A stretch of DNA of 64,000 nt, taken from Ignatzschineria sp. RMDPL8A (lineage in GTDB: Bacteria; Pseudomonadota; Gammaproteobacteria; Cardiobacteriales; Wohlfahrtiimonadaceae). The DNA lies in the NCBI RefSeq assembly GCF_029815055.1, contig NZ_JAPPWA010000002.1, positions 1,178,001 to 1,242,000 of the forward strand, read 5' to 3'. Under the pieces are notes generated by a model that saw only the letters and a list, made by a program, of their open reading frames with translations, was not told the origin of the DNA and made no database searches. Of this stretch, positions 1-36,900 are shown one piece after another (the first letter of the stretch is position 1; every line of letters starts with the position of its first letter). The position numbers were made by a program, and so were the translations under genes.

Positions 1-693
1 GGATTTAGACATTTTATTAACGCCATCTAAGCCCACAAGAAGTGGCATTGTGATCGCACATTGTGGCTTTTCAATGCCATAGGCGCGCTGTAAATCACGG
101 CCCATTAAGACGTTAAAGCGTTGGTCGGTTCCGCCCATTTCAACGTCGGTTTTAAGATGTACTGAGTCATATCCTTGAAGAAGCGGATAGATAAATTCGT
201 GCACCGCAATCGGTTGCTGGGATTTGTAGCGTTTTTCAAAGTCATCACGCTCAAGCATGCGCGCAACGGTGTAATGTGACGCTAATTGAATAAGCCCTGC
301 TGACCCTAAATCCGTCAACCATTCTGAGTTAAAGACCACTTTTGTGAGCTCAGGATCGAGCACTTTAAAGATCTGCTCTTGATAGGTTTTGGCGTTTTCA
401 AGTACCTGTTCGCGCGTTAACGGTTTACGGGTGACATCTTTTCCAGAGGGGTCGCCGATCATTCCGGTAAAGTCGCCGATCAGGAAGTTTACTTCATGGC
501 CAAGATCTTGGAAATGGCGCATTTTGTTGATCACGACAGTATGCCCAAGGTGAAGGTCCGGGGCAGTGGGGTCAAATCCAACTTTAATCCGTAATTGTCT
601 GTTCTCTTTGAGTTTTTCCGTAAGCATATCCACGGAGATAATCTCATCAACTCCGCGCTCAATTAACTTTAAACTCTCTTCTATGCTAGCCAT
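1..693 (-). CDS. tyrS: Tyrosyl-tRNA synthetase, 3' part outside window
   Basis: Charges tRNA-Tyr with tyrosine in the cytoplasm. The reverse strand from the ATG at 693 reads 231 codons without a stop and leaves the window at base 1. The class I signature PDLHLGH lies near residue 40, followed by a [16 protein letters not shown] stretch typical of TyrRS. The KMSKS motif is formed by the very last codons (VNKMSKS), so only the tRNA-binding C-terminus is missing. The HLGH variant points to the TyrZ-like bacterial subtype. It is separated from yfhL by a terminator and so is probably transcribed on its own. Confidence 0.95.
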
Positions 694-741
694 TTTTTCT
701 CCAAATTAACTTGTGCTATGAGCGTTATTTTGTATCAAAAT

Positions 742-771
742 TAAAAAAAGTGAGGCAGATTTTCATCTGCC
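742..771 (-). terminator. Intrinsic terminator after yfhL
   Basis: On the minus strand a perfect 7-bp stem GGCAGAT/ATCTGCC with a GAAA loop is followed after TCAC by a run of T. It lies between yfhL and tyrS and should end the yfhL transcript before tyrS. Confidence 0.8.
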
Positions 772-1014
772 ATCATCCATTATTGATTGGTTTAATTATC
801 AATAAATCCATATCCGATCAATCGTGCAAAGGGTTAATGAATATCAGCGCGATCTAATGGGATATTGATCCATTGAGTGCTCTATCTGCTTGATTCGATG
901 GTGATGCGTGCACCCTTAGCGCATGCGCGAAATCGTTTATTAGCTGGCGATCGCGCTCGCAGTATCGGGTGCGGCTCATTGAGCATCGATGCGAGGCATT
1001 ATCCCGCAAGGGCA
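772..1014. other. Intergenic stretch, no gene seen
   Basis: Between the yfhL stop and its terminator. Both strands were read and no ORF with a ribosome binding site was seen. It contains short palindromes (GCGCATGCGC, GCGATCGC) of no clear meaning. Confidence 0.4.
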
Positions 1015-2558
<1,544 letters not shown>

Positions 2559-2674
2559 GTTTATAACCCTCATTGACACTAGAAAAATTAATGTTTCATT
2601 ATATACGAAATTTGCGTATCCTCCAAACGAATTACAAAAGCAAAAGTGCGTCAAATCCCTTGAGATCACGCATT

Positions 2675-2705
2675 AAAAAGGCAAGCACTCAGGCTCGCCT
2701 TTTTT
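2675..2705 (-). terminator. Bidirectional terminator after tcyP
   Basis: Stem AAAAAGGC(A)AGC / GCTCGCCTTTTT with loop ACTCAG gives a T-run on both strands. It lies just after the stop of the cystine symporter gene and before serS. Confidence 0.75.
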
Positions 2706-2741
2706 TTTCAATTTTTGCGATCTCTTTGATCTGCGTCTTTT

Positions 2742-4178: not shown

Positions 4179-4359
4179 AATAAACTCCTTAAATGGGGCA
4201 AGGGTATCTCTTGAGATAAATGCACAGACAACAGAAAAAGCACACCTTATTTAAGATGATGCCATACGCTATCTGCGAAAATCGTCCCTGATGCTTAGAT
4301 TAAAAAAATTGAAAAATTGGAAATAAATTTGGGGTATTTTTAGAGGGCAATCGGTTGGA

Positions 4360-4455
4360 TTAACACGAGCGTGAAATAGGGCAGCAACAGCAACAAACAT
4401 TCGCAGCTAAATGTGCAATGTTGATACGCTGTGTAGAGTGTCTGCTCATTTTCAT
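4360..4455 (-). CDS. Poly-cysteine leader peptide upstream of tcyP
   Basis: A 31-codon ORF that I read on the minus strand starts at ATG 4455 behind GGAGAG (spacing ~6) and ends with TAA at 4360-4362. It encodes MKMSRHSTQRINIAHLAANV, then CCCCC, PISRSC and stop. The five consecutive Cys codons (TGT/TGC alternating, 4381-4395) and a final Cys just before the stop look like a ribosome-stalling cysteine sensor. The ORF is in the same orientation as the cystine transporter, 181 nt ahead of its start. Polycysteine leader ORFs acting as cysteine-responsive attenuators are known in mycobacteria. No clear mutually exclusive terminator hairpin was found by eye, so the mechanism is open. Confidence 0.65.
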   Translation of the reverse strand: MKMSRHSTQRINIAHLAANVCCCCCPISRSC

Positions 4456-4713
4456 GCTCTCTCCAGTAGAAAAAGATGGGATAAAAAATCGGTTTGAAAA
4501 ACCTTTATTAGTTATACCGCCATTTCAGGGCGATTGCAATAGGGTGAAACGATCTTCTTTGAATGCAGGTTTTAACCGTCTTTTTCTCACGCTTAATGCT
4601 ATGATAAACGGCGTTATCGCATGGAATGGATGATAGGTTATGCAGAGATTTGTCATTGGCGATTTAAGTTGAAAATCAAAATTAAACACAACAAAAAATG
4701 AGGAGAGGTCACG

Positions 4714-5031
4714 ATGTTGAGCGAAGCGACCATTTTTATTGCAGGGTATGCGCGTCTGCCTCAAGGTATGGCGGCAAAAAATTTGTATGATTCGATGACC
4801 ATTACTGCTGAAGTGGATAAAAAATATGGGGTGATTGTCGATGCGGAATGCACCTTGGTGACCGAGCTTGGGCGCGATTTTATGAAACGTCTTCTAAAAG
4901 GGCACAGTCTATTGGATGGCACACAAACCTTAATTGAGATGATTCAAGTCTATTACAAAGGCAAAGCGGCGAGCGCGCTTGTGGCGGCGGTAAAAGATTT
5001 GGAGTATCAATTTCACGGACTCTCCCGTTAA
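4714..5031 (+). CDS. DUF3870 domain protein
   Basis: A 105-aa soluble protein with the sequence FIAGYARLPQGMAAKN near residue 8 and ITAEVDKKYGVIVDAECTLV near residue 30, which I recognise as DUF3870. Function is unknown. A GAGGAGAGG ribosome site precedes the ATG. It precedes the structured leader RNA and glaH on the same strand, so a link with glutarate or amino acid catabolism is possible but not shown. Confidence 0.75.
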   Translation: MLSEATIFIAGYARLPQGMAAKNLYDSMTITAEVDKKYGVIVDAECTLVTELGRDFMKRLLKGHSLLDGTQTLIEMIQVYYKGKAASALVAAVKDLEYQFHGLSR

Positions 5032-5052
5032 AATCAAAAATGATTAAAAAGA

Positions 5053-5082
5053 TTGACTTTTATTTTAGTTGCATGCTACATT
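5053..5082 (+). promoter_or_regulatory. Sigma70-like promoter for leader RNA/glaH
   Basis: TTGACT and TACATT are separated by 18 bp, just before a structured untranslated stretch and glaH. This is a sequence match only. Confidence 0.5.
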
Positions 5083-5090
5083 CAACTTAA

Positions 5091-5289
5091 CACGATATCC
5101 CAGAGAGAAGTCGGCCATATCACCCATGGTGCGAGCCTTCTTAGAGACGATATCAAATAGATAAAATGGCAACAAACACAATTAAGCGACTGCTTAGTTA
5201 TCTGAGACTGCCCGCCGGCAGCTAATAGGATACCAAAACCAGTAACGCGTTCCGCTCAATGGAGTGGGGCTTTCGTTACTGGTTTTTTT
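5091..5289 (+). ncRNA. Structured leader RNA or sRNA with terminator before glaH
   Basis: The stretch has no ORF but clear nested pairing. CGATATC (5093-5099) can pair with CGATATC (5148-5154) and encloses a long hairpin AGAAG-GGC-CACC/GGTG-GCC-TTCT (5106-5142). A second hairpin AAGC/GCTT follows at ~5184-5195 and a third CTGCC/GGCAG at ~5208-5221. The stretch ends in a strong intrinsic terminator (5235-5289; AAAACCAGTAACG/CGTTACTGGTTTT, then T-run). It sits 75 nt before the glaH ATG. Either a riboswitch-type attenuator for glaH or a free sRNA would fit; I do not recognise a known riboswitch class. Confidence 0.55.
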
Positions 5290-5364
5290 GTTGCTTAAAA
5301 TAGATAAGCCAATAAAGTATATTTACAATAGAGAACAATTAAAACTAAGGTAGGAGAAGAGGAT

Positions 5365-6282
5365 ATGTCTACGTTTTTACAGAAAAATGATCGCTTTGAA
5401 ATTGCGTTAAACCCCCAATCAAAACGCATTCACAATATTACTCTTGCAAAATCAGTGCTTGAGACATTTTATAACCGCGTTCGTGAGGAAAATATCGAGG
5501 TTCAGCGCCTTGAATATACGCCGTATGAGCGTCAAGTGATCGCTTCTTATTTAGATGAAGCGGCGGGCAGTGATTTTGGGAATATTCTTCGCGATATTGT
5601 CAATGACCGCGACACTGGTGGATTTACCATTGGCGTTGAAGGCGTGACTGATTGCACAAGCGAATATGTGATTTTCTCCACGGCGATTGCGCACCTTGTG
5701 GGAATCTCAAACTTTGACTCGATGACCGGTAAATATTACGCGCGTTTTACCGTACGTGATACCGATGATAGTGACTCGTACTTGCGTCAAGCATATCGTC
5801 TCTTTACCCTTCATACCGATGGTACGTTCGTCAGCGAGCCGACCGATTGGTTGTTGATGATGAAAATGGTTGAAGAGAATGCGGTGGGAGGCGAGAGCCG
5901 TCTGCTTCACTTAGATGATTGGGCAGAGCTTGAGAAATTTACCAGTAGCCCACTTGGATCACACAAATTCCAATACATTGCGCCGCCGAGCAAAAATGTT
6001 CAGGAAGAGGTTCAACGCCAGCTCTTCTTTAATAAGAATAATCGCCCATGCATCTGCTTTATCGATCAGTTTGCCTATCCTGGCACCATTGAAGAAGCGC
6101 AATTCTTAAAATCGCTCTCACAATCGATGGAATCGGATAAAAGCGTGGTTGAATTAGAACTTCCTGTTGGTAATTTAGTGGTCCTTAATAACGAATTCTG
6201 GTTGCATGGCCGTGCCGCATTTGAGAAAAACCCGAACTTAAATCGTGAGCTTCTCCGTCAACGCGGTCGCTTCTACGAATAA
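5365..6282 (+). CDS. glaH: Glutarate 2-hydroxylase (GlaH/CsiD)
   Basis: Fe(II)/2-oxoglutarate dioxygenase that turns glutarate into L-2-hydroxyglutarate, giving succinate and CO2; a step of lysine-glutarate catabolism in the cytoplasm. The 305 aa (E. coli ~325) contain the iron-binding HxD at H150-x-D152 and the distal His at H281 in FWLHGRAAF, with the family stretch GGFTIGVEG near residue 85. A GGAGAAGAGG ribosome site precedes the ATG. The next step, LhgO, is encoded nearby on the opposite strand (7688-8914), and a GntR regulator adjoins it; unlike in E. coli the two enzyme genes are not in one operon. Confidence 0.92.
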   Translation: MSTFLQKNDRFEIALNPQSKRIHNITLAKSVLETFYNRVREENIEVQRLEYTPYERQVIASYLDEAAGSDFGNILRDIVNDRDTGGFTIGVEGVTDCTSEYVIFSTAIAHLVGISNFDSMTGKYYARFTVRDTDDSDSYLRQAYRLFTLHTDGTFVSEPTDWLLMMKMVEENAVGGESRLLHLDDWAELEKFTSSPLGSHKFQYIAPPSKNVQEEVQRQLFFNKNNRPCICFIDQFAYPGTIEEAQFLKSLSQSMESDKSVVELELPVGNLVVLNNEFWLHGRAAFEKNPNLNRELLRQRGRFYE

Positions 6283-6337
6283 TCGATCTTATAGGCTGGC
6301 GGTATTAGCCTCATAAAATAATCCTTATAAAAAACGA

Positions 6338-6397
6338 GCCTTACTTTTAGCGGAATTTACGATTTGACGATGATTCTGCCGAGAAGTAAGGCTTTTT
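6338..6397 (+). terminator. Terminator after glaH
   Basis: GCCTTACTT pairs with AAGTAAGGC across a ~35-nt loop and is followed by TTTTTT on the plus strand. Confidence 0.7.
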
Positions 6398-6417
6398 TGT
6401 GTCTGAGTTTTGACAAA

Positions 6418-6627
6418 TTATTTGTTGTTTAACGCTTCATGTTCTAGGAGCTGATTTGCTCTATCGAGCTGTTTTTGATGGAGTTCGCTACTTTCATTGA
6501 TGCGGCGCTCCATCTCTTCCTTCTGTTTAATTTTCTGCGGATAATAATTATCCTGTGGCTCACTGCAGGCATTTAAAAGCATCAAAGCGGTGAGTGAGAG
6601 AAGGGCGGTATTAAACAGTTGTCGCAT
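6418..6627 (-). CDS. Small lipoprotein
   Basis: A 69-aa protein with a lipoprotein signal peptide: MRQLFNTALLSLTALMLLNAC, the lipobox LLNAC placing the lipidated Cys near residue 21. The mature part is short, charged and probably helical (KEEMERRINESSELHQKQ). The frame is open upstream to 6735, but the lipoprotein start at 6627 is preferred because the signal peptide begins there and AAAAGGA lies 11 nt upstream. It follows the L,D-transpeptidase gene by 25 bp and probably belongs to its operon, which suggests a cell-envelope role. No family recognised. Confidence 0.75.
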   Translation of the reverse strand: MRQLFNTALLSLTALMLLNACSEPQDNYYPQKIKQKEEMERRINESSELHQKQLDRANQLLEHEALNNK

Positions 6628-6652
6628 CGTAGGAGTAGTCCTTTTAAAGCCG

Positions 6653-7366
6653 TTAGGGTTCATCAATGTAGATCCAGAGGAGCACCGGTTTGGTCTTCGT
6701 TTGAAGGAGCGCATCAATACGGCGCATTGCCTCATCGCTAATCACCGGACATCCTTGACTATAGCCCATGGGAAGATATTTCGGGAAGGTTTCATCAGTG
6801 GGGATTTTATCAAATGAGTGGAGCACAATATAGCGGCGAAACGCGTTGTCGTTAGTCGGTTCCAGTCCATGCATTTTATAATGAATATTGATGCCCCAGC
6901 GGCTCCATGAGCGTTCACCAAGACGATATTTCCCAAGAGAGGACGCGTAACTATCCGGCGTATTGCTAAAGGTGATCGATTGATTGGTGCTCTCAAATCC
7001 CGGTGCGCCATATCCATGGGCGACTAAACTCTCGATAATGGGTTGTTGCTCGGTAAAATCCCAGACAAAAAAACGATTGGCCCCTGAATGGATCGAAAAA
7101 TTAATTAAAACGGCGTGTTCAAGATCAAATTGATGGGCTAAAGCATATTGATAGGCCTCATCTGCGCGCTGCCGTAGGGAGGTTTCGAGTGTCTTTTTAG
7201 AGGCGTTTTTATCATGATTGACAAGGGCGTGGCTGCGCTCCCAAAAGCTCGGAATCAGGCGAATTCGATCACGAAAATAGTAGCTCGCGCCGATTAAGAG
7301 TAAGAGGGTGATGAGAATCAACGCGTAGAGCGTAATTCGGAGGAGCGGCTTTATTTTGATAGGCAT
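6653..7366 (-). CDS. YkuD_2-type L,D-transpeptidase family protein
   Basis: A 237-aa envelope protein with an N-terminal membrane anchor (residues ~8-28) and a periplasmic catalytic domain. The domain shows the YkuD_2 pattern: YIVLHSF with the conserved His near residue 183 and MGYSQGCPVIS with the nucleophilic Cys near residue 207. Such enzymes cross-link or edit peptidoglycan or attach proteins to it through meso-diaminopimelate. It is the first gene of a short operon with the small lipoprotein. Which L,D-transpeptidase reaction it carries out cannot be told from the sequence. Confidence 0.82.
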   Translation of the reverse strand: MPIKIKPLLRITLYALILITLLLLIGASYYFRDRIRLIPSFWERSHALVNHDKNASKKTLETSLRQRADEAYQYALAHQFDLEHAVLINFSIHSGANRFFVWDFTEQQPIIESLVAHGYGAPGFESTNQSITFSNTPDSYASSLGKYRLGERSWSRWGINIHYKMHGLEPTNDNAFRRYIVLHSFDKIPTDETFPKYLPMGYSQGCPVISDEAMRRIDALLQTKTKPVLLWIYIDEP

Positions 7367-7452
7367 AGTGCGGGTTAAGAGAGAAAGTGAATAATCAACT
7401 GAAGAATCAATTTAAAAATCAACGACGTGTGCTCTATCATACCGCAATTATC

Positions 7453-7529
7453 AAAAAAAGAGGAAGAGGCAATTTTAAATAGTTTCAACCGGTGAATGAA
7501 GTTTCGCGCGGTTTCACTATACCTCTTCC
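7453..7529 (-). terminator. Long hairpin terminator downstream of lhgO
   Basis: On the minus strand GGAAGAGG pairs with CCTCTTCC over about 70 nt, with inner pairing ATAGT/ACTAT and AACCG/CGGTT, followed by TCTTTTTTT. It lies ~160 nt after the lhgO stop. Between stop and hairpin (7530-7687) there is no convincing gene; an out-of-frame open tail up to the TAA at 7605-7607 was considered and set aside. Confidence 0.65.
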
Positions 7530-7687
7530 GAGTAAGCTCTTGTTAGCGGGAATTGCTTCAAGGAGGCGAAGCAGGCGCTGCGAAGAGAGTTGAGTTCGGA
7601 CTCATTATTTAAGTGCCGAGAATTCTGAGGCAATCTGATTCTGGGGAATGGGGTCGTCACTCAAAATAATCGGGCTTACTTTTGGTT

Positions 7688-8914
7688 TTAGGGCTGATTC
7701 GATTCCTGCATCACATCGCGCACGATGTGTTCCGCAATGGCAAGCGATGAGGTCGCACCCGGAGATGGAGCATTACGAATATGGATGATGTTGCCATCAC
7801 GGCGAATCACGAAATCATCGACGAGTGAGCCATCTTTCTCCATCGCTTGCGCGCGAATACCGCGAGTTGCCGGGTAGACCTTCATGCCGTTTAATGAGGG
7901 CACATACTTCACCGCTTCACTTACAAATTGTTTGGTGCTGAGCACGGTTTTTACCTCGCGCATCGCTGCCGGAACGTTTTTAAGGGCAAAGCACCAAAAA
8001 CCGGGGAAGGTGGCGTAATCGAACATATCTTTGAGATTACATCCTTTTCCATCGTAATTTTCCCGCGCTTTTGAGAGAAACGCATTGGGGCCGATCGTCA
8101 TTTTTCCATCGATCCGTTTGGTGAAATGAACGCCTAAGAAGGGATATTTCGGATCGGGGACGGGATAGATTAAGCCTTTAACCTCGCCCGTGTGCGCGTC
8201 ATCAAGAACAAAATATTGCCCAAAGAAGGGAACGATTTTAGGAGTGCCGATATCGCCTGAATTGACGGCTAATCGATCCGATTGCAATCCGGCGCAGGTC
8301 ACGGCGTAATCAAAGGTTTCAGGGTGTTCGATTGTGCCATTTTCCTTATCGATCATCACATGAATGGTGCCATCACGATTTTCAAGTGATTTGACCGGGC
8401 TTGAGAGATGGATTTCACCGCCACGCTCAATAATCTCTGCGGCAATGCGTTTGGCGATCTTCTCGTAGCTCACAATGGCGGTTTCAGGCGAATGAAGCGC
8501 CGCAATGCCGATACAATTGGGCTCAACCTCGCGAATCTCATCATCATAGAGCATTTTTATGCCGGGAACGCCGTTATCGCTCGCCTTTTGGTAGATCGCA
8601 AGCAGACGCTCTTTTTCCACCTCATTAAGAGCCACCACTAATTTTCCACACTCATCATAGGGAAGGTCGTTGGCCGCGCAGTACTCTCGCACTAGCGTCA
8701 CGCCTCGGCGACATAATTTTGCTTTTAGACTGCCTTTTGCATAATATAATCCTGCATGAACCACGCCCGAGTTATGGCTTGACTGGTGTTGTGCAACGCT
8801 CGATTCTTTCTCAAAGAGAGAGACCTTCGCCTCCGGGTAATCGAGCAAAAGTTGCCGTGCAACGGCTAGCCCATTGATCCCGCCTCCAATAATCGCATAC
8901 TTGATTGTTGCCAC
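7688..8914 (-). CDS. lhgO: L-2-hydroxyglutarate dehydrogenase/oxidase (LhgO)
   Basis: FAD enzyme of the membrane face that oxidises L-2-hydroxyglutarate to 2-oxoglutarate and passes electrons to the quinone pool; it completes the GlaH route. The 408 aa start with the dinucleotide-binding motif IIGGGINGLAVARQLL, followed by the LhgO-typical HQSSHNSGVVHAGLYYAKGS, and end with the flavin-site stretch RNAPSPGATSSLAIAEHI. The start is a GTG at 8914 behind AAGGAG. Only 29 bp separate it from the divergent GntR gene, so its promoter must lie inside that gene. Confidence 0.93.
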   Translation of the reverse strand: MATIKYAIIGGGINGLAVARQLLLDYPEAKVSLFEKESSVAQHQSSHNSGVVHAGLYYAKGSLKAKLCRRGVTLVREYCAANDLPYDECGKLVVALNEVEKERLLAIYQKASDNGVPGIKMLYDDEIREVEPNCIGIAALHSPETAIVSYEKIAKRIAAEIIERGGEIHLSSPVKSLENRDGTIHVMIDKENGTIEHPETFDYAVTCAGLQSDRLAVNSGDIGTPKIVPFFGQYFVLDDAHTGEVKGLIYPVPDPKYPFLGVHFTKRIDGKMTIGPNAFLSKARENYDGKGCNLKDMFDYATFPGFWCFALKNVPAAMREVKTVLSTKQFVSEAVKYVPSLNGMKVYPATRGIRAQAMEKDGSLVDDFVIRRDGNIIHIRNAPSPGATSSLAIAEHIVRDVMQESNQP

Positions 8915-8943
8915 AATTAACTCCTTTAGATGATGACACTAAT

Positions 8944-9660
8944 ATGAAAAAATTAAAAAAAATTGAGAATTTATCCGATCAGGCGTTTACCCTCATTCGT
9001 GAGGCGATCATGAACAATGTGCTAAAACCCGGGAAACTCTACTCAGCGACCGAAATTGGGGAATGGATCGGTGTGTCACGGACGCCCATTCGTGAGGCGG
9101 CGCAACAGCTCGCAAATATTGGTCTGGTGCGAGTAGAAAAGAATCGTGGGATTCGCATTTTGCCTACATCGTTGCAGGGATTAATTGAGTCCTTTCAAAT
9201 TCGTCTGATGCTGGAAGTGCCGATGATTCGTAAAACGGCAACTTCCCGCAGTGATGACGATTTAGTGCTCATTAAAGAGGCGTTTGAGAAGTTTCAGGTC
9301 GCTGCTGAATCCGATGATGCAAAAGCGACGTTGGAAGCTGATAAAGAGTACCATTTGGCGATCTTAAAGGCTTCGGGCATTGGGCGTGCGCTCACCATTA
9401 TTGAAAACACGCGAAACACCGTACTTCTCACAGGGCCAAGCACGATTCCTCATTCACGTTCTTGCATGGATGCGTTTAATGATCATAAAGCGCTCCATGA
9501 AGCGATTCTTACGAAAGATGCCGTTCAAGCGGGCATTGAGATGGAAAGACATATCATCAATACGGCGAACATGCTGATTACGCAGGAATCTAAAAGTCGT
9601 GACGATTGGGAAGGTGCTGAGCTTTTAGAGCAATTTGAGTGGATCTGTAATCCGCGGTAA
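8944..9660 (+). CDS. GntR (FadR/FCD-type) transcriptional regulator
   Basis: A 238-aa regulator with an N-terminal winged helix (ATEIGEWIGVSRTPIREAAQQL, residues ~37-58) and an all-helical FCD ligand domain with His residues placed as in metal-binding members (DKEYHLAIL, DHKALHEAI). The start at 8944 keeps the full wHTH; the frame is open upstream to 8905 but that would overlap lhgO. By its divergent position it probably regulates lhgO, and perhaps glaH, in response to glutarate or 2-hydroxyglutarate, like CsiR. The 29-bp gap leaves little room for separate promoters. Confidence 0.87.
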   Translation: MKKLKKIENLSDQAFTLIREAIMNNVLKPGKLYSATEIGEWIGVSRTPIREAAQQLANIGLVRVEKNRGIRILPTSLQGLIESFQIRLMLEVPMIRKTATSRSDDDLVLIKEAFEKFQVAAESDDAKATLEADKEYHLAILKASGIGRALTIIENTRNTVLLTGPSTIPHSRSCMDAFNDHKALHEAILTKDAVQAGIEMERHIINTANMLITQESKSRDDWEGAELLEQFEWICNPR

Positions 9661-9797
9661 ATTCTCCTCGTTTAATTATTATTTAACACCATTTTTATCA
9701 CAGTAGTATGTTGCATGCAACTAAAAAAGTGCAATGGATTATTACGCCCATGAATTTGCCCGTTAATGGATCAGATCAAAAGGAGAGAGAAATCATT

Positions 9798-10361
9798 ATG
9801 GAAGCCGCGATGCGCAGTTTTGCAGTGAAACTTAATAAAGCGATTAAAGAGGATATGGAGCGCCTATTGCCGCTGATGGAAGGGGAGGCGGTCTATGGGA
9901 TTGCACTCGTGGCGGACTCTTTTTTGGAATCGCTCTATATCGCCATTAATACCGAAGAATCGCTTGCCGCGCTCATGAGTGAAACGGAAGCGAAATATGG
10001 GGAGATCGCGCCGATGGATCGCCTTAAGCTCCGCTGGCAACCGGAAGCGTGGGTCTATAACAGCAGTAATTTGCAATTTCCCGCGATGCTCGAGCTTAAT
10101 CAATTTTTAGTTAATAAAACCGTCGAGGATTTTAACGGCTTTGAGATGCTCTTTTATGAAACGGTTCTCGATGAGATGACTAAACTCGATCGTAATGGCG
10201 TTTTTGGCGAGATGGAGAGAAGGGTCGATCGCATTATTTTTCTCACCATTGAGGGGGATTCCCGCCGCGTGAGTATCGAAAATTTCTTTGCGAGCCAACT
10301 TAATAGCGAAGCACAATTTGCAGAGTTTATGGCGCGTTTTGAGCCAATCCATCAGAAATAA
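9798..10361 (+). CDS. DUF4303 family protein
   Basis: A soluble protein of ~187 aa with the pattern of DUF4303: VYGIALVADSFLESLYIAINTEE near the N-terminus, RLKLRWQPEAWVY in the middle and a C-terminal FFASQLNSEAQFAEFMARF. The function of the family is unknown. The frame is open back to 9708; I chose the ATG at 9798 because AAAGGAGAGAG precedes it, though the spacing is long, and ATG 9810 is possible. It lies between a regulator gene and a convergent ABC operon and gives no clue to its job. Confidence 0.7.
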   Translation: MEAAMRSFAVKLNKAIKEDMERLLPLMEGEAVYGIALVADSFLESLYIAINTEESLAALMSETEAKYGEIAPMDRLKLRWQPEAWVYNSSNLQFPAMLELNQFLVNKTVEDFNGFEMLFYETVLDEMTKLDRNGVFGEMERRVDRIIFLTIEGDSRRVSIENFFASQLNSEAQFAEFMARFEPIHQK

Positions 10362-10410
10362 AATAAGCAATAAACCAAACAATAAAACGGGCGTAAAGCA
10401 GGCAAGAAAC

Positions 10411-10457
10411 AACCTGCAGGAACTTCTTAATATAGGGAAGTACACTGCAGGTTTTTT
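10411..10457 (+). terminator. Terminator after DUF4303 gene
   Basis: AACCTGCAG pairs with CTGCAGGTT, with inner pairing AACTTC/GAAGT, followed by TTTTTT. Confidence 0.75.
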
Positions 10458-29399: not shown

Positions 29400-29476
29400 G
29401 GACATATAGCTCAGTTGGTTAGAGCACAACACTCATAATGTTGGGGTCGGTAGTTCGAATCTACCTATGTCCACCA
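29400..29476 (+). tRNA. tRNA-Met (CAT), elongator type
   Basis: 77 nt with encoded CCA. The acceptor GGACATA pairs with TATGTCC, the anticodon loop is CTCATAA (CAT), and the body AGCTCAGTTGGTTAGAGCACAACACTCATAATG is like E. coli elongator tRNA-Met; an Ile2 (lysidine) identity is less likely. Its last 14 bases belong to a ~250-bp sequence repeated at 36598, so this gene is the target site of the island. Confidence 0.95.
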
Positions 29477-29714
29477 CATAAAACACGGAAGCCCTTGATT
29501 TTCAAGGGCTTTTTTGTTGTCCAGCATAAAAATGCCGAAGATTCTGCCGAATATTTTAAAATCCCTCCTCAAATTGATTAGCCGATTGATCCTTTTAAAT
29601 TTATCCATAAAGTCCATTTTTTTACTTTTATAAGCTCTGATCAAGTATCGATATTGTGTCGATGCGATCGACACATTGTAAAAACGTGTCGATTTTTTTC
29701 TATTTTTTAAACAT
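29463..29714 (+). repeat. Left ~250-bp direct repeat of genomic island
   Basis: Begins inside the 3' end of tRNA-Met and recurs at 36598-36848 with roughly 5-8 % differences judged by eye. It contains a terminator (29489-29515; AAGCCCTTGA/TCAAGGGCTT) and an array of 8-bp GT(A/G)TCGAT motifs: 29645, 29656, 29667 (inverted) and 29686, the first three spaced 11 bp. It ends at TTAAACAT just before the fic promoter. Confidence 0.9.
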
Positions 29715-29720
29715 ATTATG

Positions 29721-29749
29721 TTGATGTGCTGATTCCATCAACCTATACT
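29721..29749 (+). promoter_or_regulatory. Promoter of the fic operon with overlapping dyad
   Basis: TTGATG and TATACT are spaced 17 bp. The -35 is one arm of an inverted repeat TTGATG-N9-CATCAA (29721-29741), a likely operator. The fic start is 24 bp after the -10. Confidence 0.65.
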
Positions 29750-29772
29750 GTATTAAAAATTTAAAAGGAAAA

Positions 29773-30852
29773 ATGATGACTTGGATTGCTGATCAACCCT
29801 ATAACGATCTTCCTCTATTGCCTCCTAATATAGAGATTGAAACTAAAGAAGTGTTAAAAGCCTGTATTACTGCACGTGCTTCGTTAGCAGAATTAAATCA
29901 GGCAGGAAAGCTTTTACCGAACCAAGGGCTTCTTATCAATTTATTGCCCATTTTAGAAGCTCAGGGGAGTTCTGAGATAGAAAATATCGTTACCACTACA
30001 GATAAACTCTTTCAGTATGCTGGGGAAGAGAATAGTGCGGATCCTATGACCAAAGAAGCCTTAAATTATCGTCGTGCGCTTTATAATGGATTTATTTCAT
30101 TAAAAAACGTTCCTCTTTCAAGCCGTACCGCAATCGAAATTTGCAGTACATTAAAAGGCAGTGATATGAACGTGCGGAAGCAATTAGGAACAGCATTGCG
30201 CAATAGTACTACCGGTGATGTTATTTATACTCCGCCAGCAGGGGAAGGGACCATTAGAACATTACTGAAAAATTGGGAAGATTTTTTGCATGTTGAAGAT
30301 GATCTCGATCCGTTAGTTAAGCTTGCCATTTTACATTATCAATTTGAAGCGATTCATCCCTTTATAGATGGAAATGGCCGGACAGGAAGAATCCTCAATA
30401 TTTTATATTTGATTGAGAAAGAGCTTCTGACTTTACCCATCCTCTATTTGAGCCGTTATATTGTTATGAATAAGCGCAATTATTATCGATTGTTGTTAAC
30501 GGTTACCGCAAGTGGCGAGTGGGAGTCCTGGATTTTGTTTATGTTAAAAGCCATTGAAGAAACCTCTACCTGGACAAAAAATAAAATCGCTTCAATAACG
30601 ACATTAATCGAAGAAACGGCTCAACATATTAGAGAGAAAGAACCAAAAATATATAGCTATGAGCTCGTCAATATTCTCTTTGAGCAGCCTTATTGTCGTA
30701 TTGCTAACTTAGTAGAGAAAGATATTGCTAAGCGCCAAACCGCATCGAATTATTTACAAAAACTTTGTGATATTGGTGTGTTGACTGAGCATACGGAAGG
30801 TCGAGAAAAAATGTTTATTAATAATAAGTTGATTGAATTGATGAGGGGATAG
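29773..30852 (+). CDS. Fic-domain AMP-transferase, class II
   Basis: A 359-aa protein (ATG at 29773, or 29776). The Fic core motif HPFIDGNGRTGR lies at residues ~199-210; this enzyme family usually transfers AMP from ATP to target hydroxyl groups. The N-terminal helix contains SSEIEN (near residue 70), matching the inhibitory (S/T)xxxE(G/N) motif of class II Fic proteins, so activity is probably self-inhibited until triggered. A C-terminal winged-helix-like part (~290-359; DIAKRQTASNYLQKL) may bind DNA or regulate. The next gene starts 1 bp after the stop, so it is coupled to the large nuclease/STAND gene. The target is unknown. Confidence 0.88.
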   Translation: MMTWIADQPYNDLPLLPPNIEIETKEVLKACITARASLAELNQAGKLLPNQGLLINLLPILEAQGSSEIENIVTTTDKLFQYAGEENSADPMTKEALNYRRALYNGFISLKNVPLSSRTAIEICSTLKGSDMNVRKQLGTALRNSTTGDVIYTPPAGEGTIRTLLKNWEDFLHVEDDLDPLVKLAILHYQFEAIHPFIDGNGRTGRILNILYLIEKELLTLPILYLSRYIVMNKRNYYRLLLTVTASGEWESWILFMLKAIEETSTWTKNKIASITTLIEETAQHIREKEPKIYSYELVNILFEQPYCRIANLVEKDIAKRQTASNYLQKLCDIGVLTEHTEGREKMFINNKLIELMRG

Positions 30853-30853
30853 T

Positions 30854-33800
30854 ATGAGTCTAAATCATGCACATGAAGGTTATGAGTATCAAGATCTGAT
30901 AGCCAGTTATTTTATTTTGAAAGAAGCTTTATCGGGTAATTTAGACAGTGTTTTTTCTATTGATAGAAAAAACAGTGATAACGATAGATTTGATGATATT
31001 GTGATTACAAATAAACAGAAAGTACAACGCAAACAGATTAAGTATAGCAACCGAGATACAGGAAAAAAATTAACAAAAGATTATCTTTCTGCAGATAGCC
31101 ATTATCAAATTGCTCTTCATAGTTTATATGAAACTTGGATAAATTTAGAAACTTCTAATACTGAATTTAGATTATGCTTGGCATGGGATGAACCAATAGA
31201 TAACAATATCACAAGAGTATTAGTTGAACAGTCATCTGATATATCTTCTTTTTCTATATTTCCAACAAAGGTTTTTAAAATAGATTTGGATAAATTATGG
31301 GAAATAGAACCAGAAAATTTTAATCGTTGGGATAGTCTAAAAAATTACGCAACAGAACATAATCTTGATAGAAGTACTTTTAAGAATTTTACAGATGAGT
31401 TGTTAATAGAAGTTAATTTCCCAAAAGCAAGTTTAAGCTTTAAGGAACCAGATGATTTAGAGAACATTTTAATTCTACAAGCGGAAAAATTAGGGATAGG
31501 GCAATATCCTAATGATGATGTTTATATCAATGATTTTTTAGTTCGCCTTGCTAAATTAGCAGGAAATTATCGAACTCGATCGGCTGAAGTTACTGTTACA
31601 GATGTTTTAATTGAATTAAGAGTAAAAACTGATTTTGGAAAAATTGAGCAAAAATTCGATATTAATGCCAATTTAAATATTACTTCGGATTCAGACTATA
31701 ACTCTTTTCTAGAAGAGATTGAAAATAAAAAAACAATTTTACTTGGAGAACCAGGCTCTGGAAAATCATGGTTTTTAACTAATTTTATAAATCACCTTTC
31801 ACAAAAAAATATTGCAGTTATACGTCATTATTGTTTTACAGGGACAGATGATGATTTGTTACTTGATAGAATTAAGACTGATACATTCTATGGTAATTTA
31901 GTTTCATCCATTTTAGAGAAATTTCCAGATCTATTTACTGAAAAAGAAAATAGATATGTAGCAAATCTATCTGAATTGAATCTTTTGCTCTCGAAGATTG
32001 AAGAGCCTTTTATACTAATTATTGATGGGTTAGATCATATTGAAAGAGTTTTAAAAAATTCAAAGGAATTGTCAGAAGATAGAACCAGAATTATAGAAGC
32101 TATTTCTCAATTAGAAACTTCTGAAAATATATCCATTGTTTTAGGTTCGCAAAACGTTGAAGAAGTGAAATTTCTTACAGAGGATTTTAACTATCAAGAA
32201 ATATCAATACCTAAATGGAATATTAATTTTACAAAGCAATTAATGGATAAGTTTAGCCGTAAAGATATCAGTTTTGAAAAAGATAATCTTTCAGATCTCC
32301 TCTACAAAAAGAGTGAGGGCAACCCTCTTTATTTAACATATATTTTAAGATCAATAGAAAATATACAACGGGTCTCACAAGAACAGATTGAAAGCCTACC
32401 TCAATATGATTTTAACTTACAGAGCTATTATAAACATCTCACAGCTCAATTAGAAAGAAATACAACAGCTGATACGTTATCTTGTTTGGATTTTTCTCTC
32501 TATAAGAATGAGCTAAAAGAAGTAGTAAAACCTGCTTATATGATGGAGAAAGACTTAAAAATATTATCTCCCGTCATTATAGAGAATGCTTCTAGAGGTG
32601 GCATAAGGCTATATCATGATAGTTTCCGACGTTTTAATTTAGAGAGATTGCCTGAAGAAGCAAAATTGGAATTGCATGAAAATATAGCATTTTGGTTGGA
32701 AGAACAAGGATTTTATGAAAATCAAAAATCCTATCGCTATCTAACCAAATACCTCATTGAATCTCATCAATATGAAAAAATTAAAGAATTAGCTAATGTT
32801 GATTTCTTAATTAATAGTTTATACCAAGGTCACTCTGAGGCTTTAATCAAAAATAATTTTAAGTCCTTTTTAAAAGTTGCAACAGAACAGCTCGATTGGC
32901 CATTTATTATTTATTTAAGTGAATTGAATCGTACGATATATTCAACTATATCAGAGGAGTATCATAGTCAAATTATAGAGAATTTTGAGCTATTTTTTGA
33001 GGCTATTTGTGTGATCGAAGGAACAAGTAAAGCCAATAATCTTTTGTATTTTAATGGTGAAAAAAATTTCGATAATCATATTACAGCACAAGCATTCAGT
33101 ATTTTACAAAAATTTGGTTATAAACCAAGATGGGAAAATATTAGTGAATTGTTTGAAAAAGACAATTTAGAAAATAATTTTAAATATACAGTTAAATATT
33201 GGCTTCAAGAAATAGAACCAATAGATATTTTCAACTACAGATTATTAGGTGATAATTTTAAAATTAATTTATTCAATATATTTATTGAAGAGCTTTATTA
33301 TGCAAAGGGTTTCAGCCAAGTTTATGCGATATATGAATCAGTTTCTAATAAAAAATTAGCAGAAAAGATTGGCGATTTAATTAATAGAGTTTTGCAAAAA
33401 ACAAATTGTAAAGATCTTATTCCTATTGATATTTTAACTCACAAGAACGAGCTAAAAAAATTAAGCTGTTCTTTTATTAGCGATCCATATAATAAAAAAG
33501 ATATAGTTGAGTTTTATAATAGTGTAAAAAAATATTCCATATTAGATATTGAGACTTTAATTTCCTTTGAAGAATCATTACCTAAACAGGATTTTATTTA
33601 TAATTGGATAAAATTTTATATCCGAAATACTGTAGCTATTAATCAGAATTTATCAGAAAAAGAATTAGAAAAATACATAGTTAGCAATTTTCGGTTCTTA
33701 GCAAGTGATTTAGAGTTATTTAAAGGGGATCCAAGACCATATGATTTTTTACATCCGAATAAGGACATTATAGAAATAACTGTCTTAGAGGCATTAAAAT

Positions 33801-35590
33801 ATATTGCGACTGTTGAAGCTTGGAAGGATGTTGTTCTATCTTTGAAAAAAATACATATTGACTATACTCTTCCTGTTTTCTACTTAGTAGAAAATAATTT
33901 TTTAAATAAAGATAATATTCAGTTTGTTATAGATGTTTATGATGAGTGGGATAATTTGTCTGAAGATGTTGTATATGAAAAACATGCTGAGTATTCTTTT
34001 AAGAAAGCAATCTACTATGGAAAATTGGGGAATAAAGAACTTGCAAAAGAAGAATTAAAAAAAGCTCTTCGATACATAACAGGATACACCTATAGAAAAG
34101 ACACTAGCTTAAATGAAGTAATTAATCCTTTGTCAGTTTTAAATAAAATTAGTTCTGAAATCGCGCTTGAATATGCTAAAAAATTAAAATACCTAACCGA
34201 TGCCGTGATGAATCATACAGAAGATGGCAAAGACACTCGTTGGTTAACGATGGATTGGTTTAAAAAGCTTATAGAGATAGATTATGATTTGGCTACTAAA
34301 TATTTAATTAATCAATTTATTGCTAAACCTACATTTTGGAAGCTGGATTATATGTTTATAGATTACCTACATATAAGTTTCGATAAAGTTGATCCTATTA
34401 TTTTAAGTTTTCTGTACCGATTATCGCCAACAAATAATCGAGATGAATATTTAAATGGATTCTTAAATGTTTTAGAAGAATTAAAGGGAATAAATGAAAA
34501 TTTAGCAAAACAATCATTAATCGATTTATCAGAGAGACATTGGAATGATTCATATGACACTTTAAAAGATACTAGTGTAGTCAGATTAATATCATTACTA
34601 GATGAGTTTGGATTGAAGCATGGTTTTACAGACATTAATCCTAACAATAAGAGCTCTAACATTGGTGTAAAAAGTGTGAAAATAGTAGAAAATACTGTCA
34701 TAGAGTTATCTTCTCTCGATAAGATGAATGATAAAGAGTTGTTAGAGCACATCAAGAATAAAAGAAGTCTAACTGAAATAGAATCCAATTATTTATTTAC
34801 ATTTTTACAGAAAAAACAAGATGATCAAGTAATTACTAAATTCTTGTTAAAAATAATTCAACAGCAATTCCTATCAGATGATTTATCGAGAAGTTTACAA
34901 AAAATAATTTATGATTTACCTATAAGTGAGGAAGCCAAAATTGTTCTTTTAGTAAATAACTTTGTTTATTCTAAGGATGGTTGGTTTGCAAACTTTACAG
35001 AACGAGAATCTCTCAAAATAGCAGTTGATTATGATAGAAACATGGCAATGCAAACACTTGTAGAGGTTTTATATTATTACTTTTCGAGCACTGGGTATTT
35101 TTCAGAATCAACAGCTAACCTCATTATTGCACTGACTAATGCAGGGGCTGATAAAGATACTATTATTGATATGTATAAATCAGGGTATCAAGTCTTAGAA
35201 AGTAGATTGCCTGATATTAATAATTTTGATTGGCAAGATGTAGAGAGCCCAGAGTTTTTAGAAATGAATTGTGATGAGCTTGCTATTGTAATGTTATTGA
35301 GTAAATCAAAATTTCATGATGCTTATATTCAAAGAGAAATAATTTATGCTCTTAGCTACTTTATGAAAGAAAATGGGGATTTATTAATTAAACCTCTTAG
35401 ATGGGTTTTTAATCGACATGAGCAATTTAATATGTTGTTTATAGCAACTGTATTAAAACTTCTAGAAACAGAGAAAGATAATAATAAAATGCTTTTAGCA
35501 GAAGTTAAAGAAAGTCTGGAAAGCTTATACAACATAGAAAGCGTATATATTGATGATAAAGTTCATAGTCTCATTGGAGGGGTATCATAA
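30854..35590 (+). CDS. Nuclease-STAND ATPase defence protein (Avs/Cap4-like architecture)
   Basis: A 1578-aa protein of strongly AT-rich codon use. Residues 1-110 look like a Cap4/DUF4297-type PD-(D/E)xK nuclease: E11 in YEYQDL, D47/D48 in FDDIVI and Q61-I-K63. Residues ~290-560 form a STAND-type P-loop ATPase: Walker A GEPGSGKS (298-305), Walker B FILIIDGLDH (386-395), a sensor-like LGSQN and GNPLYL before a winged helix. The rest (~600-1578) is helical and repeat-like without clear motifs and would be the sensor. This order (effector nuclease, STAND switch, long helical sensor) matches antiviral Avs proteins. It lies between fic and an unknown gene and shares the stop/start base with the latter. 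The anti-phage role is inferred from architecture and island context. Confidence 0.75.
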   Translation: MSLNHAHEGYEYQDLIASYFILKEALSGNLDSVFSIDRKNSDNDRFDDIVITNKQKVQRKQIKYSNRDTGKKLTKDYLSADSHYQIALHSLYETWINLETSNTEFRLCLAWDEPIDNNITRVLVEQSSDISSFSIFPTKVFKIDLDKLWEIEPENFNRWDSLKNYATEHNLDRSTFKNFTDELLIEVNFPKASLSFKEPDDLENILILQAEKLGIGQYPNDDVYINDFLVRLAKLAGNYRTRSAEVTVTDVLIELRVKTDFGKIEQKFDINANLNITSDSDYNSFLEEIENKKTILLGEPGSGKSWFLTNFINHLSQKNIAVIRHYCFTGTDDDLLLDRIKTDTFYGNLVSSILEKFPDLFTEKENRYVANLSELNLLLSKIEEPFILIIDGLDHIERVLKNSKELSEDRTRIIEAISQLETSENISIVLGSQNVEEVKFLTEDFNYQEISIPKWNINFTKQLMDKFSRKDISFEKDNLSDLLYKKSEGNPLYLTYILRSIENIQRVSQEQIESLPQYDFNLQSYYKHLTAQLERNTTADTLSCLDFSLYKNELKEVVKPAYMMEKDLKILSPVIIENASRGGIRLYHDSFRRFNLERLPEEAKLELHENIAFWLEEQGFYENQKSYRYLTKYLIESHQYEKIKELANVDFLINSLYQGHSEALIKNNFKSFLKVATEQLDWPFIIYLSELNRTIYSTISEEYHSQIIENFELFFEAICVIEGTSKANNLLYFNGEKNFDNHITAQAFSILQKFGYKPRWENISELFEKDNLENNFKYTVKYWLQEIEPIDIFNYRLLGDNFKINLFNIFIEELYYAKGFSQVYAIYESVSNKKLAEKIGDLINRVLQKTNCKDLIPIDILTHKNELKKLSCSFISDPYNKKDIVEFYNSVKKYSILDIETLISFEESLPKQDFIYNWIKFYIRNTVAINQNLSEKELEKYIVSNFRFLASDLELFKGDPRPYDFLHPNKDIIEITVLEALKYIATVEAWKDVVLSLKKIHIDYTLPVFYLVENNFLNKDNIQFVIDVYDEWDNLSEDVVYEKHAEYSFKKAIYYGKLGNKELAKEELKKALRYITGYTYRKDTSLNEVINPLSVLNKISSEIALEYAKKLKYLTDAVMNHTEDGKDTRWLTMDWFKKLIEIDYDLATKYLINQFIAKPTFWKLDYMFIDYLHISFDKVDPIILSFLYRLSPTNNRDEYLNGFLNVLEELKGINENLAKQSLIDLSERHWNDSYDTLKDTSVVRLISLLDEFGLKHGFTDINPNNKSSNIGVKSVKIVENTVIELSSLDKMNDKELLEHIKNKRSLTEIESNYLFTFLQKKQDDQVITKFLLKIIQQQFLSDDLSRSLQKIIYDLPISEEAKIVLLVNNFVYSKDGWFANFTERESLKIAVDYDRNMAMQTLVEVLYYYFSSTGYFSESTANLIIALTNAGADKDTIIDMYKSGYQVLESRLPDINNFDWQDVESPEFLEMNCDELAIVMLLSKSKFHDAYIQREIIYALSYFMKENGDLLIKPLRWVFNRHEQFNMLFIATVLKLLETEKDNNKMLLAEVKESLESLYNIESVYIDDKVHSLIGGVS

Positions 35591-36465
35591 TGGATGAACC
35601 ATATCAGAGGCAAATTCTAGACTATATCAATCAGCACTTATTGTATTATTCACACTGGAAAGAGATACTTCCTTCAACAATATCACAAGAAATATTGTTG
35701 GATATCAGAGAGCATGAGTTGGATGTATTCCATAATCGTGGATATTCTTTGCAATCACCTAATAATTACATTGAGGCTTTAGTCTTTGAGCATGTTAATC
35801 AATGGCTCTATCAAAACTATAAAGAGAGCGTTGTTTTTGAAAAGGATATTATGATTGATGTTAAAACCATGATAGCAACATCTAGTTCATTAATTCAAAG
35901 ACCGATTATTCAAACTCCTTCTAAAACTATTTCAGGATTTAAAGAGCCTATTACTGAAGGAGATTATGTTCAAATAGCACGATTTGAAAGAGAATTAACC
36001 TTAAATAGATCTTGGGAAAAAGCTAATAATGGTGGAGGAATAGTATGTGAAGGCTTACTTCCTTGTCAACTAAATGATGTAAATCCTTTATTGCCCAATA
36101 CAGGAATTACTCATCATATTTGGACGAATACTTTTTATAAAAATAACCCATTTATTCAAGGTTTTTATGGAAAAATGAATAGCATTGAGGCTCCATACGT
36201 TTTATGGATGAATAGCGAGTTGTTATCCATGTTGGGACTAACGCTTGATGATTATAAACAAGGATTGCAAGCATTAAACAAGCAAAATGAGATAGCTTTG
36301 CAGTTTAGACAATGGCGATCAAAATTTATTGACAAAGGTTCCTCATTTGTTGGTATGGAATCTAATATAGCTAAATTAGAAGGGTGTGATTTAATATTAA
36401 GAAAAGATTATTATGACAAGCTTAAAGAAATCATTCCTCAATTATGTTTTTTTACTGATTTATAA
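35590..36465 (+). CDS. Unknown island protein
   Basis: A 291-aa soluble protein with no domain I recognise. It is rich in aromatic residues, with a Gly-rich spot NNGGGIVCEGLL near residue 150 and no signal peptide or TM helix. The start codon shares a base with the stop of the nuclease/STAND gene (TAATG), so synthesis is coupled and stoichiometry may matter. A role as accessory or immunity factor of the fic-STAND operon is an inference. Base composition is low in G+C like the rest of the island. Confidence 0.7.
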   Translation: MDEPYQRQILDYINQHLLYYSHWKEILPSTISQEILLDIREHELDVFHNRGYSLQSPNNYIEALVFEHVNQWLYQNYKESVVFEKDIMIDVKTMIATSSSLIQRPIIQTPSKTISGFKEPITEGDYVQIARFERELTLNRSWEKANNGGGIVCEGLLPCQLNDVNPLLPNTGITHHIWTNTFYKNNPFIQGFYGKMNSIEAPYVLWMNSELLSMLGLTLDDYKQGLQALNKQNEIALQFRQWRSKFIDKGSSFVGMESNIAKLEGCDLILRKDYYDKLKEIIPQLCFFTDL

Positions 36466-36522: not shown

Positions 36523-36611
36523 AGACATATAGAGGTAAATTCAATAGAATCATAAAGATAACTAACTATACGCCTGTATGTTTATTCTATATTTTCCACC
36601 TATGTCCACCA
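36523..36611 (+). pseudogene. Possible decayed tRNA-Met copy at right island end
   Basis: GACATATAG (36524-36532) equals bases 2-10 of the tRNA-Met, TCATAA-like anticodon remains follow near 36550, and ACCTATGTCCACCA (36598-36611) equals its last 14 bases. The middle cannot fold into a cloverleaf. This fits a degenerated duplicate left by integration, but chance similarity of the 5' part is possible. Confidence 0.35.
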
Positions 36612-36848
36612 CATAAAACATGGAAGCCCTTTATTTTTAAGGGCTTTTTTGTTGTCCAGCATAAAAATGCCGAAGATTCTGCCGAAGATTTTAAAATCCC
36701 TCCTCAAATTGATTAGCCGATTGATCCCTGTAAATTTATCCATAAAGTCCATTTTTTATTTTTATAAGCTCTGATCAAGTGTCGATATTGTGTCGATGCG
36801 ATCGACACATTGTAAAAACGTGTCGATTTTTCACTGATTTTTAAACAT
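36598..36848 (+). repeat. Right ~250-bp direct repeat of genomic island
   Basis: Second copy of 29463-29714. It starts with the 14-bp tRNA-Met 3' end, includes the same terminator (36624-36650) and the GTGTCGAT array at 36779, 36790, 36801 (inverted) and 36820 with identical spacing. The two copies delimit a unit of 7135 bp. Chromosomal sequence (sufE) resumes to the right. No integrase gene lies inside. Confidence 0.9.
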
Positions 36849-36851
36849 AAT

Positions 36852-36900
36852 AAAGCCCCAAGCTCGCATTTTAAAACTCATGCGAATCGCTTGGGGCTTT
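36852..36900 (-). terminator. Terminator after sufE
   Basis: AAAGCCCCAAGC/GCTTGGGGCTTT with an inner CGCAT/ATGCG pairing, 40 bp after the sufE stop. Confidence 0.7.

What the first reader, a model, noticed from the sequence alone, without database searches (positions are those of the whole stretch)
29721..36465. Three-gene coupled operon: class II Fic protein, Cap4-like nuclease/STAND ATPase, unknown protein
The genes follow with 1-bp gap and 1-bp overlap behind a single promoter with an overlapping dyad. The middle protein shows nuclease residues (E11, D47/48, QIK 61-63), Walker A/B and GNPLYL of STAND ATPases and ~1000 residues of helical sensor-like sequence, an Avs-type layout. Linking it tightly to a self-inhibited Fic AMP-transferase and a conserved-looking unknown protein is an arrangement I do not know as a described defence system; Fic could be a second effector or a regulator of the nuclease.
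Basis: partly seen in the sequence, partly recalled or inferred. Interest (0 to 1): 0.85.

Follow-up and report, generated by a model that had tools for sequence, protein, structure and literature searches.

The report
Split Avs3-like phage sensor beside SoFic
A bacterial genome carries a known anti-phage gene (SoFic) directly in front of a giant nuclease-sensor protein resembling the phage sensor Avs3, whose C-terminal tail seems to be made as a separate protein; the sensor and its tail recur together in other bacteria, without SoFic beside them.

Summary
The three ORFs are real, intact and packed as described, but they are not one three-gene system. (1) Gene 1 is a full SoFic, a known stand-alone anti-phage AMP-transferase. 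(2) Genes 2 and 3 form a conserved two-gene unit: the third gene lies directly behind the large gene in 12 of 12 related loci that hold the large gene's 3' end (one copy broken), in Gammaproteobacteria and Arcobacter, while SoFic is absent from all 13 related loci with at least 3 kb of upstream sequence. (3) The large protein's N-terminal part folds like the Cap4 nuclease plus STAND ATPase of Avs3 (first Foldseek hit, 8dgc). The third protein's own, low-confidence model also has Avs3 first, at Avs3's C-terminus. In a cyanobacterial homologue (more weakly in one other genome) this domain is fused to the large protein's C-terminus. Genes 2+3 thus look like an Avs3-like receptor with a detached C-terminal domain. 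(4) The operon sits between about 258-bp direct repeats starting in a tRNA-Met 3' end, a site holding other cargo in relatives. No sequence-level link to Avs3 was found; phage trigger and DNA cleavage are inferred, not shown.

The parts
29400..29476 (+). tRNA-Met (CAT), the site beside which the module sits
   Evidence: ARAGORN
29460..29718 (+). left direct repeat: last 14-17 nt of the tRNA, its terminator, spacer and a dyad (29642-29688)
29487..29513 (+). terminator-like hairpin behind the tRNA
29721..29749 (+). promoter TTGATG-17-TATACT with overlapping TTGAT..ATCAA dyad; conserved before fic genes or fic remnants in relatives
29773..30852 (+). SoFic, class II Fic AMP-transferase with SoFic-like C-terminal domain
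   Evidence: NF046030 611 bits (cut-off 550); Pfam Fic_N, Fic, SoFic-like_C; motifs
30854..35590 (+). Avs3-like large protein: Cap4-type nuclease (about aa 7-261), STAND/NACHT ATPase (about aa 262-525), presumed helical sensor to aa 1578 (not folded)
35590..36465 (+). separately encoded Avs3-like C-terminal domain (291 aa)
   Evidence: adjacent in 12 of 12 loci; fused in L006; fold match to Avs3 1823-2043
36595..36852 (+). right direct repeat, beginning with a tRNA 3'-end fragment (ACCTATGTCCACCA)
36622..36648 (+). terminator-like hairpin in the right repeat, possible end of the operon transcript

Best explanation
The stretch is a small defence module next to tRNA-Met holding two independent anti-phage devices on one likely transcript. 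SoFic is a self-inhibited AMP-transferase. Genes 2+3 are a two-subunit Avs3-like receptor: the large protein has the Cap4-type DNase, the STAND ATPase and most of the sensor; the third protein supplies the C-terminal domain that in Avs3 and in a cyanobacterial homologue is part of the same chain. Most likely the two subunits, made in near-equal amounts by translational coupling, associate into an Avs3-shaped receptor. A phage protein held by the sensor drives ATP-dependent oligomerisation, which pairs the nuclease domains and degrades DNA. Shown here: gene anatomy, conserved pairing, absence of SoFic elsewhere, fusion; supported by predicted models: the nuclease, ATPase and C-terminal-domain folds. 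Inferred: subunit association, phage trigger, oligomerisation, DNA cleavage.
For: SoFic identity over the equivalog cut-off and 1.1e-157 match to solved SoFic. From large-gene searches, the third gene follows in 8 of 8 loci that hold the large gene's 3' end. Third-gene searches added three new genomes (G576, G875, G1001) and the 3' part of the G399 locus, each with the large gene in front. Overlap of 1, 8 or 20 bp in the window and the 7 relatives measured. No SoFic at 13 loci with at least 3 kb upstream or over cut-off in 9 genomes + 2 plasmids. Model of aa 1-640: Avs3 8dgc_A is Foldseek rank 1, E 1e-8; VIA Z 13.7 over model 1-525 / Avs3 6-574; nuclease part matches LmuA Z 13.1 and HamA Z 11.6. 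Third-protein model: the two Avs3 chains rank 1 and 2, E 3.5e-4 and 5e-4, next 0.16; VIA Z 8.8, 169 residues, model 90-291 / Avs3 1823-2043. Fusion: a third-family profile made without it finds the C-terminus of the 2006-aa Pseudanabaena homologue as best non-member among 1643 ORFs (12.8 bits, E 0.0048; best of 2000 shuffles 4.8, best reversed ORF 6.4). A second, weaker C-terminal fusion in L119. Defence-type neighbours in L004 (REase_I), L005 (PD-Lambda-4), L015 (PDC-M62A/B), L014 (PDC-S05). Avs3 activation by tetramerisation of nuclease domains: passages of PMC11291478.
Against: No sequence-level match of the large or third family to any Avs3 chain in the PDB, and no PADLOC Avs3 match of the large proteins of the window, L004, L006, L012 and L015 or of the window's third protein. 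The third-protein model is poor (pLDDT 58; Foldseek TM-score 0.32-0.34, rmsd 12-15), and Z 8.8 is modest: sigma-factor helices score up to 7.8 on its residues 1-82. The N-terminal model is moderate (67.6), and in the VIA list MalT and plant NLRs score slightly above Avs3 on the ATPase (13.9-14.5), which are ties. The sensor aa 640-1578 was not folded. Pfam Cap4_nuclease matches 1 of 10 members, below cut-off. The L119 fusion scores 22 bits only with the profile that includes L006, 4.4 bits without. Scanned neighbours in L012 and L007 (one each) gave no PADLOC match. No functional data.
Confidence: 0.65

Rival explanations
1. One three-gene system in which Fic is a second effector or a regulator of the nuclease receptor.
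For: One likely promoter, 1-bp spacing, a GAGGGG ribosome-binding-type sequence for the large gene inside the fic end; the only other ORF of at least 80 aa between the repeats lies inside the large gene on the other strand.
Against: SoFic missing from the 13 related loci with at least 3 kb upstream and, over cut-off, from 9 carrier genomes. SoFic occurs in family members G009 and G013 behind the same promoter region, and the large gene is in 0 of 16 same-family genomes. In same-species G040 a fic remnant is followed closely by a different gene. GC differs: 0.375 vs 0.282.
Confidence: 0.07
2. The third protein is not part of the receptor but an inhibitor or immunity-type partner that keeps the nuclease receptor off.
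For: Strict adjacency and coupling also fit toxin-inhibitor pairs.
Against: The domain is fused to the receptor C-terminus in L006 and its model matches the Avs3 C-terminus. In Gallibacterium L014 the third gene is broken while the large gene is open, hard to square with a needed inhibitor.
Confidence: 0.13
3. The receptor senses something other than phage packaging proteins, for example plasmids or another phage protein.
For: Known Avs triggers differ (terminase, portal, Ksap1, JADA; PMC12931631 passages), and nothing here identifies the ligand.
Against: The first Foldseek hit for both models is the terminase-bound Avs3; the third protein corresponds to its C-terminus.
Confidence: 0.2

Closest known systems
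Avs3 (PDB 8dgc)
   Same: N-terminal Cap4-type nuclease, STAND ATPase and a C-terminal domain, matched in order by two independent models.
   Different: Encoded by two coupled genes; no sequence-profile match to the solved Avs3 chain; no PADLOC Avs3 match; trigger unknown.
SoFic (NF046030; PADLOC SoFic)
   Same: Full length, catalytic and inhibitory motifs, SoFic-like C-terminal domain, over equivalog cut-off.
   Different: Sits 1 bp before a receptor gene.
Lamassu LmuA / Hachiman HamA / Cap4 nucleases
   Same: Nuclease domain fold.
   Different: Here fused to a STAND ATPase and sensor.
cis-mobilizable elements (CIMEs) and other tRNA-site cargo modules
   Same: Cargo bracketed by direct repeats holding a tRNA 3' end, without an integrase between them.
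   Different: Repeats are long (about 258 bp); excision or transfer not shown. The CIME term was seen in a search listing only; the concept is recalled.

Membership tests
Avs3 / AVAST | N-terminal Cap4-type PD-(D/E)xK nuclease | tested here: met
   VIA match of aa 7-261 to LmuA Z 13.1 and aa 6-260 to HamA Z 11.6, of 1-525 to Avs3 Z 13.7; FDD..QxK motif in all 10 homologues; Pfam Cap4_nuclease only below cut-off
Avs3 / AVAST | STAND/NACHT ATPase with Walker A and B | tested here: met
   NACHT and NPHP3_N at E up to 0.01 in 10 of 10 members; GEPGSGKS, IDGLDH; NLR and Apaf-1 folds
Avs3 / AVAST | long helical-repeat C-terminal sensor | tested here: inconclusive
Avs3 / AVAST | C-terminal domain in the same chain | tested here: not met
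   separate gene in the window and in 12 of 12 loci; fused only in L006 and, weaker, L119
Avs3 / AVAST | sequence-profile relation to known Avs3 | tested here: inconclusive
   no PADLOC Avs3 match, no PDB sequence match; whether these profiles would reach this divergence is unknown
Avs3 / AVAST | binding of large terminase and activation | not testable with these tools
   needs experiment
SoFic | over NCBIfam equivalog cut-off, full length | tested here: met
   611 bits vs 550, residues 4-358
SoFic | HxFx(D/E)GNGRxxR and class II inhibitory (S/T)xxxE(G/N); motif definitions recalled | tested here: met
   positions 195 and 66
SoFic | protection against phage | not testable with these tools
   reported for other SoFics (PMC12249575, abstract)
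CIME-like tRNA module | direct repeats including tRNA 3' end, no recombinase inside | tested here: met
CIME-like tRNA module | excision or site-specific transfer | not testable with these tools
   needs experiment

The most novel reading that the evidence does not exclude
A bipartite bacterial NLR-type receptor in which the terminal ligand-reading domain is a separate, dissociable subunit: it may catch the phage protein first and only then complete the Avs3-like receptor, so assembly itself is the activation step. Transcription behind SoFic would give the same cell a second killing arm.
Probability: 0.2. Interest if true: 0.68.

Novelty: new variant of a known kind. Interest (0 to 1): 0.5.

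Why it matters
Avs proteins are bacterial counterparts of NLR immune receptors. A natural split at the C-terminal domain, conserved in Gammaproteobacteria and Arcobacter and undone by fusion elsewhere, gives a ready tool to ask what that domain does: ligand reading, autoinhibition or assembly. The window's 291-aa protein had no Pfam match over cut-off and no NCBIfam or PADLOC match, so the fold link gives its family a first testable role. The case also warns against reading tight spacing as one system: two kinds of defence have become neighbours at a tRNA hotspot.

Tried and rejected
Fic as part of the system was rejected on distribution. A first genome-contig scan with the single large protein found nothing; the alignment query found 9 loci. 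Two scans of viral contigs and two of phage records gave no relatives of genes 2 or 3. Sequence searches of the PDB with the large and third proteins or families gave nothing or only chance-level hits. Eight other STAND-type proteins from plasmids (one each from L099-L102, L104, L105; two from L103) showed no convincing copy of the third domain (best 4.4 bits, not at the C-terminus), so it is not general to bacterial STAND proteins. A tyrosine integrase as mover was sought: 3 in the own genome, none in the module; two have the size of XerC/XerD (the reading is mine). There are two dyads: one at the promoter (29721-29741, conserved before fic) and one inside the repeat (29642-29688, recurring at 36776-36822). 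Papers: PMC12249575 abstract and passages; PMC12799240, PMC12931631, PMC11291478, PMC13236601 and PMC10884400 passages (with abstract starts in listings); all others search listings only. No title or abstract start describing a split Avs3 appeared in the listings of searches (capped lists); the original Avs papers did not appear in these listings, so absence from print is not shown. Dropped before the 12 of 12 count: L009 (5' part of the locus whose 3' part is L118; same genome G399), L010 and L013 (no 3' end of the large gene), L006 and L119 (fused).
Full report
What is there. The three ORFs exist as described: 29773-30852, 30854-35590 and 35590-36465, with a 1-bp gap and a 1-bp overlap. GC is 0.375, 0.282 and 0.313 against 0.44-0.46 in the flanks. 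The promoter at 29721-29749 is conserved before fic genes or fic remnants in relatives; its consensus score alone is at chance level.

Gene 1. It is SoFic: 611 bits against an equivalog cut-off of 550, 1.1e-157 to solved SoFic, PADLOC SoFic 1e-121, catalytic and class II inhibitory motifs present. SoFic is reported to protect bacteria against phage by itself (PMC12249575, abstract and passages).

Genes 2 and 3 as a unit. Searches with the large protein gave two plasmids with full-length close relatives and nine genome loci. In all 8 of these 11 that hold the 3' end of the large gene, the third gene follows at once. Searches with the third family found again the known carriers G404, G405 and G399 and three new genomes, G576, G875 and G1001; in G399 the match lies on a second contig with the 3' part of the large gene whose 5' part is L009. 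Each has the large gene in front of the third. Together that is 12 of 12 loci; in Gallibacterium L014 the third gene is broken. Overlaps are 1, 8 or 20 bp in the window and seven relatives measured. Hosts by record title are Pseudoalteromonas, Moraxella, Vibrio, Gallibacterium, Arcobacter and an uncultured gammaproteobacterium. The family is rare: of 369 genomes of the window's class only the own genome, 2 of 108 in the genus of G402, both known before, 2 of 228 in the family of G405, 5 of 394 in the order of G404, one of them the weak fused hit.

Fic is not linked. tblastn with the window Fic found nothing (E up to 1e-3) in the 12 loci L004-L015 or in L115-L119. Thirteen of these 17 have at least 3 kb before the large gene (L004-L007, L009, L012-L015, L115-L117, L119); L008, L010 and L011 have under 0.6 kb and L118 lacks the 5' end. 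Genome-wide, 0 of 11 genomes or records had SoFic over cut-off, best 65 bits against 550; other Fic proteins below cut-off occur in 7 of 11, and several of these genomes are drafts or MAGs. Conversely, SoFic with the same promoter region stands in G009 and G013, while the large gene is in 0 of 16 same-family genomes.

What genes 2 and 3 are. The nuclease and ATPase motifs are conserved or nearly so across 10 homologues; NACHT matches 10 of 10 at E up to 0.01, Cap4_nuclease only 1 of 10 and below cut-off. The model of aa 1-640 (pLDDT 67.6) has Avs3 as first Foldseek hit, E 1e-8. VIA aligns 417 residues, model 1-525 to Avs3 6-574, Z 13.7, rmsd 9.5 (rank 5; MalT and plant NLRs, matched from about residue 260 on, score 13.9-14.5, ties); the nuclease part matches LmuA (Z 13.1, rmsd 4.4, 205 residues) and HamA (Z 11.6, rmsd 3.8, 195 residues). 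The third protein's model is poor (pLDDT 58), yet both Avs3 chains lead its Foldseek list at 3.5e-4 and 5e-4 with the next entry at 0.16. VIA places residues 90-291 on Avs3 1823-2043, the end of that chain (Z 8.8, 169 residues, rmsd 5.0); residues 1-82 match sigma-factor helices (Z up to 7.8), likely a common arrangement. This is suggestive by itself and gains weight from the fusion below.

Fusion. The 2006-aa Pseudanabaena homologue ends in a region that aligns along the third family, including RP..P, YEREL, fRxW and GxDLILRxD. With a profile built without it, it is the best non-member among 1643 ORFs at 12.8 bits (E 0.0048, next 7.1); 2000 shuffles of that region reach 4.8 and reversed ORFs 6.4. 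In G809 another homologue, interrupted near its start by an IS3-type gene (my reading of the ORF), carries the domain at its C-terminus: 22 bits with the profile that includes L006, 4.4 bits without. So the fused state is supported once and more weakly a second time. Eight other STAND-type proteins from plasmids showed no such domain.

How it most likely works. Avs3 binds a viral protein with its sensor, tetramerises and pairs its N-terminal nuclease domains (passage of PMC11291478); Avs1-Avs4 recognise large terminase, portal or Ksap1 (passage of PMC12931631). From the shared ends and the split I infer that the large and third proteins assemble into one such receptor. That the C-terminal domain of Avs3 helps hold terminase is recalled, not read here.

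Setting. The operon lies between direct repeats of about 258 bp, 94% identical, the left one starting in the last bases of tRNA-Met. The right copy carries ACCTATGTCCACCA, the tRNA end, without the rest of the tRNA, and around it matches the tRNA ends of genus g2 (G001, G004, G012) over 17 nt exactly. Same-species G040 (310 contigs, 7% contamination) has a type I RM set and an ATPase behind a tRNA-Met on one contig, and on another a tRNA-Met, a 3' fic remnant, a 431-aa ORF and sufE (the name sufE is my reading of the ORF). G012 has three copies of the tRNA end and terminator bracketing an IS3/Doc module and an arsRCB module. The site is thus a cargo hotspot; the two defence devices are most simply neighbours brought together there. 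No recombinase lies in the module, and movement was not shown. Elsewhere the pair has defence-type neighbours: REase_I in L004, PD-Lambda-4 in L005, PDC-M62A/B in L015, PDC-S05 in L014, weak helicase-type hits in L009, none for the single neighbours scanned in L007 and L012.

Limits. No sequence-level link to Avs3 came out of my searches, the sensor was not folded, and nothing functional was tested. I therefore call genes 2+3 Avs3-like by fold and order, not an established Avs3.

Noticed in passing
L060 (G012:C128) 58-5846: Tandem modules (IS3 + Doc-type Fic; arsR-arsC-arsB) bracketed by direct repeats of up to 257 bp containing a tRNA-Met 3' end and terminator: a repeat-bracketed cargo array on a 5.9-kb contig.
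   Followed up: partly
L053 (G040:C284) 353-8319: Same-species strain carries type I RM genes and a PtuA/OLD-like ATPase behind tRNA-Met.
   Followed up: partly
L054 (G040:C93) 316-1729: A fic 3' remnant is followed 22 nt later by a 431-aa ORF with no Pfam or PADLOC match, in the place taken by the receptor gene in the window.
   Followed up: partly
window 29657-29716 and 36791-36850; L053-L059, L061: A ~58-bp element (GTGTCGATTTTTT..TTTTTTAAACAT) recurs near fic genes, fic remnants and small ORFs in three genera, in several genomes as pairs 1.2-2.5 kb apart; role unknown.
   Followed up: partly
L119 (G809) 3168-10455: Fused Avs3-like homologue interrupted near its start by an IS3-type transposase gene (by eye).
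   Followed up: no
L014 11682-12553: Gallibacterium third gene is broken into pieces while the large gene is open.
   Followed up: no
L115 1058-5191 and 10892-13951: Large ORFs on both sides of the pair (1377 and 1019 aa) look like further defence genes by eye; not scanned.
   Followed up: no
L005 3196-6942: PD-Lambda-4-type gene directly upstream of the pair on a Moraxella osloensis plasmid.
   Followed up: partly
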